Below are positions 60,156-64,000 of a stretch of 64,000 nt of DNA, one piece after another. Numbering within the stretch: position 1 is the first letter of the stretch; each line of letters opens with the position of its first letter. Under the pieces are notes generated by a model that saw nothing but the letters and a program-made list of their open reading frames with translations, was not told the origin of the DNA and searched no databases. The stretch comes from [Leptolyngbya] sp. PCC 7376 (GTDB lineage: Bacteria; Cyanobacteriota; Cyanobacteriia; Cyanobacteriales; MRBY01), in assembly GCF_000316605.1 (NCBI RefSeq), contig NC_019683.1:3704036-3768035 (forward strand). Reading direction: 5' to 3'. A program made the translations under genes and the position numbers.

Positions 60156-61541
60156 CTAACCCCAGTTGACATTCATAGCTCCTTCATATCCTTCCTCGGT
60201 GATCATATTCCACTTCTTTAATTTTTTAATTACTTTTACCACCATCTCCCCTGAAACTTTAATGCCGAAACCACCTTGGTGTATGTGCATATTACTTTCC
60301 ACTGGAGCTCCCCTGAGATGAGTTCCAGAATGTACAAAATCATGTTCTCCAAATCTACTCACAAGCTTCGCTTTTTTCGCTTCACCTTGTAAGTTCATAA
60401 TTCTCCTCATCGCTTTCATGTCAAATGGATATTTGGGGCAGATTGTAAAAATCTTCCCTCCTTTTGTCTTATGTATTGAATAAATAGTTTCTGATTCTCC
60501 TTTGGGATAAAATGCGTAAGATGCATACGGAGCTGAATCAGCCATCACATTTTCACTAAAGTGATTATTGCCCCTTGCAATAAGAGAATCTTTCAGTAGC
60601 TCTTCACAATATGCGTTGTAATGCGATTCGGTGATGTACGGATAGTTAGACATTTTAATAAGCAAACCATTTAGCATATCTCCATCATTAGCTTGCACAA
60701 AATTCTCTATTCTTTTCTCTCCAGGCAACATGCTTCCTGCTAAGGGATATCGGGCTGCCGATACTGATTCTGGAACTATTCTGTCATCCCCTGCATATCC
60801 CAATTCCTCGCTTGCTTTCTTGACTCTTTTTACTTCCTCCGATCTCTGTATAAGCGCTCTCATTGCAACAGTTTTATCTGCACTTTGTTGCACTACATGA
60901 GTTAATTCATGAGCTAAAAGTGTCTGTCCATTATGTGAATTGGGTTGATATTCTCCTTGACGGAAAAAGATATCTTGACCTGTGGTAAAGGCTTTTGCTT
61001 GGATGGATCGATTCAGATCATCTGCATGGGCATTGTGATGAATTCTGACGTTACTGAAATCCGAACTGAATGCATTCTCCATTTGGGGACGAAGATCGTC
61101 CGGCAATGTCTCTCCCGACCCTCTTACTTGGTTAATTGAGGTCTCTAGTTTGGAAGGAATGGCAGCAGAAGAGTCTCCATCTTTTCTTTGAAGCGCAGAA
61201 AATTTGAGCGGTGTAACACGGGGAGAGCCTCTATCTATTTCTTCTCGACGCTGAATCTGATCGTCTTCAGATTTAGAAATATCGGGGGACTGAATTTGTT
61301 TAACAACTTGATCCGCAACTCGATCTGCTTCTTGCTCGTATTTGTCGTTGGGTTCTCCAATTGTGAGTTTGGCCTGAAGCGGCAAGGATAAGTCGCGGAA
61401 TAGGCCTGAAAAATTTGAGTTAAGAGGTTTCGTCGCTTGCTGTAGCTCTTGACTAAATACTGGTGTGTTCTGAGAGTGAGCAGGGGCGATCGCCGAACTA
61501 GATTGTTTGCTCTGAGGTTTAGTGAGGCGTGTTCTAGTCAT
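60156..61541 (-). CDS. eCIS-core domain (DUF4157) protein with unassigned C-terminal region
   Basis: The protein of about 461 residues starts with a Gln/Ser-rich low-complexity region. The eCIS-core DUF4157 domain lies at about 145-225, with LPDDLRPQMENAFSSDFSNV, RIHHNAHADDLN, AFTTGQDIFFRQGEY and the metallopeptidase-like TLLAHELTHVVQQ (HELTH near 211-215). DUF4157 proteins are linked to extracellular contractile injection systems and often form the leading part of a cargo or toxin. The C-terminal 230 residues are not recognised. They contain HDFVHSGTHLRG and NMHIHQGG, a cluster of five His that could bind metal. The start is taken as ATG 61541; ATG 61550 is possible. Confidence 0.8.
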   Translation of the reverse strand: MTRTRLTKPQSKQSSSAIAPAHSQNTPVFSQELQQATKPLNSNFSGLFRDLSLPLQAKLTIGEPNDKYEQEADRVADQVVKQIQSPDISKSEDDQIQRREEIDRGSPRVTPLKFSALQRKDGDSSAAIPSKLETSINQVRGSGETLPDDLRPQMENAFSSDFSNVRIHHNAHADDLNRSIQAKAFTTGQDIFFRQGEYQPNSHNGQTLLAHELTHVVQQSADKTVAMRALIQRSEEVKRVKKASEELGYAGDDRIVPESVSAARYPLAGSMLPGEKRIENFVQANDGDMLNGLLIKMSNYPYITESHYNAYCEELLKDSLIARGNNHFSENVMADSAPYASYAFYPKGESETIYSIHKTKGGKIFTICPKYPFDMKAMRRIMNLQGEAKKAKLVSRFGEHDFVHSGTHLRGAPVESNMHIHQGGFGIKVSGEMVVKVIKKLKKWNMITEEGYEGAMNVNWG

Positions 61542-63318: not shown

Positions 63319-63696
63319 TCAATGGCTTGTTTCGTTTATTGGGAGCGCATGCAACGTATCATCCGGATCTACCCAATAAAACTCTAAGTTAGCGGGATTT
63401 GATTGTTGCAACTGTTCCGATATCAAAAACTCTTGGCGATAGCTGCTGTTAAATGGTGGACTAACCAATTTTTGAAAGGCTTTAATTAAAAATTTTTTTT
63501 CTTTGAATTTCAACTCAAACTTATAAATTTCTTTCGCAGAATTTCTCAAGCTATGTTTAGTTTCAATCTTGAGTAGGTTGCCTGCCAAAATAAGTTTAGG
63601 CTTTTCTTTTAACTCATCGAATTGAACTTGCTCTTTCCCCAGAAAGATACCCGCACTCTCTAAAGTTCTGAGCAATAATCCTATGAAATTTTCCAT
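63319..63696 (-). CDS. Unrecognised protein, about 125 residues
   Basis: The protein starts MENFIGLLLRTLESAGIFLG at ATG 63696. It is rich in Lys and Glu in the middle (LRNSAKEIYKFELKFKEKKF) and ends LEFYWVDPDDTLHALPINET. I see no catalytic motif, signal peptide or clear membrane helix. It lies 27 bases downstream of the truncated serine-rich gene on the same strand, so co-transcription is plausible. A reading frame from an earlier ATG at 63708 is also open. Confidence 0.6.
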   Translation of the reverse strand: MENFIGLLLRTLESAGIFLGKEQVQFDELKEKPKLILAGNLLKIETKHSLRNSAKEIYKFELKFKEKKFLIKAFQKLVSPPFNSSYRQEFLISEQLQQSNPANLEFYWVDPDDTLHALPINETSH

Positions 63697-63722
63697 AACT
63701 AAAAACAAACCTAACTGGATAG

Positions 63723-64000
63723 CTATAGACTTGACTTTTTCGAACTCTTCTTTGCGCGGCGACCTAGGCTGCTACTTGTACTACTTATAGTGCCACTTAC
63801 GCTACCGCTACCAAGGGCACTATTCGCTGTGTTGCTGGAAATACCTATGCTGCTGCTGGACGTGCTGCTGACACTATTGACGCTACTACTTCGATCTTCG
63901 GGAAGGACACCACCGGTTGTGCCGCCGTTCGCCGCGACGATACCGACACCTAATGCACTAGGGTTTGGAATTCCCCAAGATTTGTATGCCAGTCTTTCTT
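63723..64000 (-). CDS. C-terminal part of a serine-rich protein, running off the window
   Basis: The reverse-strand frame is open from base 64000 to the TAG at 63723-63725. It translates ERLAYKSWGIPNPSALGVGI, then VAANGGTTGGVLPEDRSSSV, a Ser-rich repeat region (SSTSSSSIGISSNTANSALG, SVSGTISSTSSSLG) and a basic ending RRAKKSSKKSSL. The start lies beyond the window. I do not recognise the family. The basic Ser-rich tail suggests a disordered region. It sits near the DUF4157 gene and could belong to a larger cluster outside the window. Confidence 0.6.
   Translation of the reverse strand, partial: ERLAYKSWGIPNPSALGVGIVAANGGTTGGVLPEDRSSSVNSVSSTSSSSIGISSNTANSALGSGSVSGTISSTSSSLGRRAKKSSKKSSL

What the first reader, a model, noticed from the sequence alone, without database searches (positions are those of the whole stretch)
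60156..61541. eCIS-core (DUF4157) protein with an unassigned His-rich C-terminal domain
The protein combines a DUF4157 domain, with the HELTH motif, and a C-terminal region of about 230 residues that I cannot assign. DUF4157 is established as a marker of extracellular contractile injection system cargo or assembly proteins. In cyanobacteria such particles can be thylakoid-anchored. The C-terminal part carries HDFVHSGTHLRG and NMHIHQGG, whose His residues could form a metal site. No sheath, tube or baseplate gene is in the window, so an eCIS link rests on the domain alone.
Basis: partly seen in the sequence, partly recalled or inferred. Interest (0 to 1): 0.75.

Follow-up and report, generated by a model that had tools for sequence, protein, structure and literature searches.

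The report
Injection-machine cargo protein, unknown payload
This cyanobacterial gene most likely encodes a cargo protein for a phage-tail-like injection machine encoded elsewhere in the same genome; its exchangeable business end belongs to a rare family that matched nothing named in the libraries searched, and what it does is still unknown.

Summary
The ORF is real: 60156-61541 (-), 461 aa, with a strong eCIS_core/DUF4157 domain (E 7.8e-32, HELTH intact) and a C-terminal domain (CTD) without convincing match in Pfam, NCBIfam, PHROGs, PADLOC or PDB. The injection-system link no longer rests on the domain alone. (1) The genome has a CIS cluster at C1:693671-713301, about 3.05 Mb away. (2) The CTD was found in two other genomes, both times fused to DUF4157: in G189 169 bp from an AAA-ATPase gene heading a CIS operon, in G636 101 bp behind a related ATPase ORF. 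(3) DUF4157 and the CIS spike tip occur in the same 3 of 6 genomes of the family; in the order, 77 of 78 genomes with a clear DUF4157 have the CIS gene Pvc16_N. (4) The protein is mosaic: the front follows the genus, the CTD does not (G636-G189 50%, window-G636 29%), and a congener carries another C-terminus in the same slot. Best reading: DUF4157 CIS cargo with an exchangeable payload, as AlgoCIS Cgo1/Cgo2. Payload chemistry is open; seven His/Asp/Glu are invariant in the three members. No usable fold.

The parts
60156..61541 (-). DUF4157 protein with unassigned C-terminal domain (461 aa), predicted CIS cargo
61392..61541 (-). hydrophilic, disorder-promoting N-terminal leader (residues 1-50), similar within the genus
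60879..61106 (-). eCIS_core / DUF4157 domain (residues 146-221)
   Evidence: PF13699 E 7.8e-32
60897..60911 (-). HELTH (HExxH) motif, residues 211-215
   Evidence: HExxH present in the five proteins aligned
60159..60794 (-). C-terminal domain (residues 250-461), rare family, three members found
60471..60485 (-). IYSIH (residues 353-357); I, Y, S and H invariant in the three members
60318..60353 (-). FGEHDxxHSxTH motif (residues 397-408); F G E H D H S T H invariant in the three members
60279..60287 (-). HxH (residues 419-421), both His invariant in the three members
63723..64000 (-). 3' end of the second DUF4157 gene of the genome (runs on beyond the window), different C-terminus

Best explanation
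The gene encodes a cargo (effector) protein of a contractile injection system. The hydrophilic N-terminal leader and the DUF4157 domain address the protein to the CIS particle, whose parts are encoded about 3.05 Mb away in the same genome. The C-terminal domain is the payload: an exchangeable module on a genus-specific leader/DUF4157 part. Released on sheath contraction, the payload would act in the target. I think the payload most likely is a small His-dependent hydrolase (nuclease or other), with E399, H400, D401, H404, H408, H419 and H421 (and H357) as candidate active-site or metal residues. Shown here: domain content, CIS genes in the genome, co-occurrence, adjacency of the two homologues to a CIS operon or to a CIS-type ATPase ORF, mosaic structure. 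Inferred: loading into the tube, delivery, enzymatic nature and target. The sub-claim 'hydrolase' alone I rate at about 0.3.
For: eCIS_core at E 7.8e-32. CIS cluster at C1:693671-713301 with Pvc16_N, two sheaths, two T4-gp19-type tubes, CIS_tube-LysM, Phage_GPD, Phage_base_V, Baseplate_J, Tail_P2_I and CIS_spike_tip. Homologue in G189 (32% identity, query positions 48-216 of 234, E 8.5e-15) lies 169 bp from, and divergent to, an AAA ATPase gene (PF00004 E 9.5e-27) followed by Pvc16_N, sheath, tubes, spike and spike tip. Homologue in G636 follows by 101 bp, same strand, an ORF 51% identical over 269 aa to that ATPase. Relatives of these ATPases also lie beside DUF4157 in 5 of the 30 DUF4157 loci (about 3 kb each) fetched. 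Co-occurrence: family f1, DUF4157 and CIS_spike_tip in the same 3 of 6 genomes; order, 195 genomes, DUF4157 at E<=1e-8 in 78, of which 77 have Pvc16_N, against 4 of the other 117; at E<=1e-20, 74 of 75 against 7 of 120. Mosaic: residues 1-60, 37-55% within the genus, 16-23% to G189; CTD 49.7% between G636 and G189 but 28.9% between window and G636; in G512 the same slot holds a DUF4157 gene whose C-terminus shows no blastp or profile match to the CTD. Leader: 5 of 104 background ORFs as hydrophilic over 35 residues, 1 of 104 as rich in disorder-promoting residues at 6-21, the direction reported for eCIS-associated toxins (PMC11297309 section 9). Precedent: Cgo1/Cgo2 of AlgoCIS, disordered N-terminus, central DUF4157, different C-termini, shown to fill the tube (passages of PMC8894135).
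Against: In this genome the gene is far from the CIS cluster, whereas 88% of EATs lie within ten genes of the operon (passage of PMC11297309). No AAA ATPase of the kind next to the homologues was found in the stretches of this genome held here, nor in the CIS stretches of G512; the rest of the genome was not searched for it. No aromatic residue in the first eight, a feature reported for EATs, and the charge at 6-21 is unremarkable (20 of 104 background ORFs reach it). The linker at residues 55-140 does not separate genus from G189 cleanly (34-62% against 36-44%). The window CTD lacks the last ~35 residues present in both homologues and I saw no trace of them downstream, so it could be impaired. 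At E<=1e-3, 26 of 104 DUF4157 genomes lack Pvc16_N (25 weak matches and G656, which has a spike tip); the 1e-8 cut-off was chosen after seeing the list. No fold: AF2 pLDDT 37 and 59, best Foldseek E 0.17.
Confidence: 0.78

Rival explanations
1. An orphaned, decaying cargo gene: once a CIS effector, now cut off from the operon and shortened at its C-terminus, without a current function.
For: Distance from the CIS cluster; missing C-terminal tail; CTD coding DNA is AT-rich for the window, 39.3% GC against 44.1%, 5.8% of 640-bp stretches as low; an IS630-type transposase lies just upstream of the second DUF4157 gene.
Against: A 461-codon frame without inner stops, HExxH intact, and the motif residues shared with the two homologues kept; the two other CIS-bearing congeners, G512 and G636, also have their DUF4157 gene on another contig than their CIS genes, so distance is usual in this genus.
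Confidence: 0.13
2. The protein is not cargo but a helper: DUF4157 works as a chaperone or processing peptidase for CIS cargo (or for the particle), and the CTD is a binding part.
For: DUF4157 has HExxH; the authors of PMC11297309 suggest a chaperone role in cis or trans (passage).
Against: C-termini differ between DUF4157 proteins of one genus while the front half is kept, which fits interchangeable payloads better than a helper; Cgo1/Cgo2 with this architecture are in the tube lumen.
Confidence: 0.12
3. A housekeeping or regulatory protein unrelated to injection.
For: The gene sits between ordinary genes (an asparaginyl-tRNA synthetase, named by eye; an alpha/beta hydrolase).
Against: DUF4157 is absent together with the CIS spike tip from 3 of 6 genomes of the family; the CTD was found in 2 of 388 genomes of the order.
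Confidence: 0.04

Closest known systems
AlgoCIS cargo proteins Cgo1 and Cgo2 (Algoriphagus machipongonensis), passages of PMC8894135
   Same: Disordered N-terminus, central DUF4157, different C-terminal domains, two such genes in one genome; shown to occupy the tube lumen.
   Different: Their genes are in the CIS cluster; the C-terminal domains were not compared here (sequences not held).
Alr3311 and Alr3312 of the Anabaena thylakoid-anchored CIS, passages of PMC8894136
   Same: Two DUF4157 putative effectors in a cyanobacterium with a CIS; found by mass spectrometry in CIS preparations.
   Different: Reported with the cluster there; here two DUF4157 genes lie together but about 3.05 Mb from it. 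Sequences not compared.
eCIS-associated toxins (EATs) of PMC8213781 (passages) and PMC11297309 (passages and section 9)
   Same: DUF4157 with a hydrophilic leader and a C-terminal part; 983 of 1130 predicted DUF4157 EATs have no other annotated domain, which is the class this gene falls in.
   Different: Not adjacent to the operon; whether this very gene is in their lists could not be checked (supplements not available).

Membership tests
DUF4157-type CIS effector (EAT) | eCIS_core/DUF4157 domain with HExxH | tested here: met
DUF4157-type CIS effector (EAT) | hydrophilic, disorder-promoting N-terminus | tested here: met
   (5 of 104 and 1 of 104 background ORFs reach it); the published SVM score was not computed
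DUF4157-type CIS effector (EAT) | aromatic residue in the first eight residues (a tendency, not obligatory) | tested here: not met
   0 in the window protein; 1 of the 5 DUF4157 proteins compared has one
DUF4157-type CIS effector (EAT) | CIS structural genes in the same genome | tested here: met
DUF4157-type CIS effector (EAT) | gene in or next to the CIS operon (88% of EATs, not obligatory) | tested here: not met
   about 3.05 Mb apart in G000; met for the homologue in G189
DUF4157-type CIS effector (EAT) | variable C-terminal payload on a shared front part | tested here: met
DUF4157-type CIS effector (EAT) | loaded in the CIS tube | not testable with these tools
   needs particles, mass spectrometry, cryoET
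DUF4157-type CIS effector (EAT) | toxic or otherwise active in a target cell | not testable with these tools
   needs expression assays
Known payload family (Pfam, NCBIfam, PHROGs, PADLOC, PDB by sequence) | profile or sequence match of the CTD above threshold | tested here: not met
Known fold (PDB, Foldseek) | significant structural match | tested here: inconclusive
   model too weak (pLDDT 59, pTM 0.55); best E 0.17
Thylakoid-anchored CIS (tCIS) cargo | CIS of the tCIS type with its anchoring parts | not tested
   no tCIS reference sequence was compared

The most novel reading that the evidence does not exclude
The C-terminal domain founds an undescribed enzyme family, with its own His-based active site (FGEHDxxHSxTH ... 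HxH), that travels between cyanobacterial orders as a payload cassette of contractile injection systems and, in one genus, is kept in a chromosomal cargo slot away from the injection operon where C-termini are exchanged.
Probability: 0.35. Interest if true: 0.62.

Novelty: new member of a known kind. Interest (0 to 1): 0.45.

Why it matters
Most DUF4157 proteins predicted as CIS cargo have a C-terminus of unknown nature (983 of 1130 in PMC11297309, passage seen). This one gives a small, defined payload family with invariant candidate residues and a natural comparison (a congener with another C-terminus on the same front part), in a genome whose CIS cluster is located. It also shows that a likely cargo gene can lie megabases from the operon, where neighbourhood-based surveys would not look.

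Tried and rejected
Searches with hits: class, 2 of 388 genomes (window and G189); family of G189, 1 of 63, G189 itself; phylum with the 2-row alignment, 1 of 386, the window itself (G636 got its handle only, and the query holds G189's own sequence, so I take it that neither was drawn); order with the 3-row alignment, 2 of 388, window and G636. These are draws from larger groups, and the related-loci scans rest on short peptide patterns, so more members may exist.

Structure: CTD of the window with 2 sequences gave pLDDT 37; the G636 CTD with 3 sequences pLDDT 59, pTM 0.55. The element order of that model made me think of BECR-type RNases (recalled), but Foldseek against the PDB gave nothing below E 0.17, so I do not claim it. 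The BFVD library was not searched (one search failed). Taken as chance: yeast eIF5 (E 0.017, residues 121-199, not the CTD), LSm4 (E 0.14), NCBIfam PRK08238 (E 0.12 and 0.11), Penicillinase_R (E 0.26, 1 of 3 members), phrog_11754 (E 0.07, residues 58-104).

Immunity gene: among ORFs of 45 aa or more in 8-10.5 kb around the window gene, G636, G189 and G512, the only shared ones are the DUF4157 proteins, the ATPase (G189 and G636) and short ORFs antisense to these genes. So there is no sign of a cognate immunity partner; the test does not exclude one.

Co-occurrence: DUF4157 at E<=1e-3 is not a clean marker of a CIS (26 of 104 genomes without Pvc16_N), and CIS_spike_tip misses many CIS (23 of 195 genomes against 81 with Pvc16_N). 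Pvc16_N is one gene, not a whole CIS. Genomes are related, so the Fisher values are not true probabilities.

Full report
Observation. The ORF at 60156-61541 (-) reads from ATG to stop as 461 aa. Pfam eCIS_core (DUF4157) covers residues 146-221 at E 7.8e-32; no other Pfam family is listed up to E 1. HELTH is at 211-215. The C-terminal 230 residues match no family of Pfam, NCBIfam, PHROGs or PADLOC and no PDB sequence beyond chance.

The genome. The window is C1:3704036-3768035 of a single-contig genome of 5,125,950 bases. The size reminds me of Leptolyngbya sp. PCC 7376; that is recall, and a paper search and passages of PMC6256058 do not settle it. eCIS_core occurs twice in the genome: this gene and a second one 2.2 kb beyond its 5' end, which ends at window base 63723 and has another C-terminus. 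Between them lie an alpha/beta hydrolase gene on the other strand and a 129-aa ORF; an IS630-type transposase lies just upstream of the second gene.

The injection system. The sheath family hits two neighbouring genes at C1:695579-697221. The stretch C1:693671-713301 holds Pvc16_N, two sheaths, two T4-gp19-type tubes, CIS_tube with LysM, Phage_GPD, Phage_base_V, Baseplate_J, Tail_P2_I and CIS_spike_tip; a fibre-like 803-aa ORF (no Pfam match) and a 127-aa ORF in the usual place of gp25 (not scanned) are assigned by position only. The cluster is about 3.05 Mb from the window gene (about 2.05 Mb the other way if the contig is a circle). In the 35 kb past the window no relative of its proteins was found.

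Relatives of the CTD. One of 387 other genomes drawn from the class has it: G189, in another order, 556 aa, DUF4157 plus CTD. A third member came to light in a congener, G636, 491 aa, again DUF4157 plus CTD. The 3-row profile finds only window and G636 in 388 genomes drawn from the order. So the CTD is rare in what was searched, and 3 of 3 copies found are fused to DUF4157. Across the three, invariant residues cluster in IYSxH (353-357), FGEHDxxHSxTH (397-408) and HxH (419-421). The window protein ends about 35 residues before the other two; reading the three frames downstream by eye shows no remnant of that tail.

Link to CIS genes. In G189 the CTD gene is divergent to, and 169 bp from, a 674-aa AAA ATPase gene (PF00004 E 9.5e-27), followed by Pvc16_N, sheath, tubes, spike and spike tip. 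In G636 an ATPase-like ORF, 51% identical over 269 aa to that one, lies 101 bp upstream of the CTD gene on the same strand; there the ATPase is seen as a 135-aa and a 543-aa ORF and may be broken. Relatives of these ATPases also lie in 5 of the 30 DUF4157 loci, about 3 kb each, that fetched. The CIS genes of G636 lie on other contigs than its DUF4157 gene (C119 and C150 against C123), as do those of G512 (C16 against C19). Pvc15, the ATPase of the Photorhabdus CIS, loads cargo through N-terminal signal peptides (abstract and passages of PMC11495950). No such ATPase was found in the stretches of the window's genome, or of the G512 CIS region, that I hold; the rest of the genome was not searched for it.

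Co-occurrence. In the family f1, eCIS_core and CIS_spike_tip are in the same 3 of 6 genomes. In 195 genomes of the order, eCIS_core (E<=1e-3) is in 104, CIS_spike_tip in 23, Pvc16_N in 81. The 23 spike-tip genomes all have eCIS_core. At E<=1e-8 (a cut-off chosen after seeing the list) eCIS_core is in 78, of which 77 have Pvc16_N; the exception, G656, has a spike tip. Pvc16_N without eCIS_core at that cut-off: 4 of the other 117. At E<=1e-20: 74 of 75, and 7 of 120. At E<=1e-3: 78 of 104, and 3 of 91; 25 of the 26 without Pvc16_N are weak matches. In at least 10 of the 23 spike-tip genomes a listed eCIS_core match lies within 3.5 kb of the spike tip (read from the rows; the list was cut).

Mosaic structure. 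In the congener G512 the slot between the asparaginyl-tRNA synthetase gene and a transporter-type binding protein gene (both named by eye; 96% and 90% identical to those of this genome) holds one DUF4157 gene; its front is 55% identical to the window protein over residues 1-228 of the 468-aa ORF frame, and no blastp match goes further; the CTD profile finds nothing in G512. Other genes also lie in that slot in G512. Pairwise identities by region: residues 1-60, 37-55% among the four proteins of the genus, 16-23% to G189; residues 55-140, 34-62% and 36-44%, so not clearly separated; DUF4157, 60-68% among window, G512 and G636, 44-52% to G189 (the second gene of the genome is the outlier, 34-37% to the others of the genus and 27% to G189); CTD, 49.7% G636-G189, 28.9% window-G636, 30.5% window-G189 (forced alignment with the two unrelated C-termini gives 7-21%). 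The CTD of G636 is thus nearer to that of another order than to that of its congener, while its front part is nearer to the congener's. I read this as exchange of the payload onto a genus-specific carrier. These are pairwise figures from three CTDs, no tree was built, and a faster rate in the window's CTD could explain part of it.

Leader. Over the first 35 residues the window protein sums to -34 on the Kyte-Doolittle scale; 5 of 104 background ORFs are as low. At residues 6-21, 81% are disorder-promoting; 1 of 104 reaches it. The charge there, +2, is reached by 20 of 104, and there is no aromatic residue in the first eight. The first two are the directions reported for eCIS-associated toxins; so would be a higher charge and an aromatic residue, which it does not show clearly or lacks (PMC11297309 section 9, read). 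Background ORFs are mechanical, some may have wrong starts, and a few are counted twice because L003 overlaps the window.

Mechanism. The nearest tested precedent is AlgoCIS: Cgo1 and Cgo2 share a disordered N-terminus and a central DUF4157, differ in their C-termini, and fill the tube lumen (passages of PMC8894135). In Anabaena two DUF4157 proteins were detected by mass spectrometry in CIS preparations and proposed as cargo (passages of PMC8894136). I therefore commit to CIS cargo (0.78) with an exchangeable payload. For the payload's action I favour a His-dependent hydrolase (about 0.3), from the invariant His, Asp and Glu residues alone. The predicted model is too weak to use (pLDDT 59; Foldseek best E 0.17).

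Novelty. As a protein it is a new member of a known kind: a DUF4157 CIS cargo with an unannotated C-terminus, a class already noted in print (983 of 1130 in PMC11297309). The CTD family itself I did not find in the libraries searched; my four literature searches could not find a domain without a name, so I make no claim that it is absent from print.

Noticed in passing
63723-64000 (-), continuing beyond the window; whole in L003:4259-5740: Second DUF4157 protein of the genome with a divergent eCIS_core (E 7.3e-11, HEAWH) and another unassigned C-terminus with GHAWLSY and NCSSFA, which look to me like a Cys-His (papain-like) enzyme; no Pfam, PHROG, PDB or plasmid match.
   Followed up: partly
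63319-63708 (-): 129-aa ORF directly behind the second DUF4157 gene, same strand; only sub-threshold Pfam matches. Could be a partner or immunity protein of that gene.
   Followed up: partly
L003:5897-6881 (+), beyond the window: IS630-type transposase in two ORFs just upstream of the second DUF4157 gene.
   Followed up: no
L023:10770-12832 (-), G636: The CIS-type AAA ATPase next to the homologue is seen as two ORFs (135 and 543 aa), so it may be broken or misread there.
   Followed up: partly
L009:9941-10935 (-), about 3 kb before the CIS cluster: STAS-domain and HATPase_c_2 (anti-sigma type) genes near each other, close to the CIS cluster; a possible regulator pair.
   Followed up: no
195 genomes of the order: 25 genomes have only weak eCIS_core matches (E 7.6e-4 to 3.8e-8) and no Pvc16_N; they may hold a separate DUF4157-like family with no CIS.
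   Followed up: no
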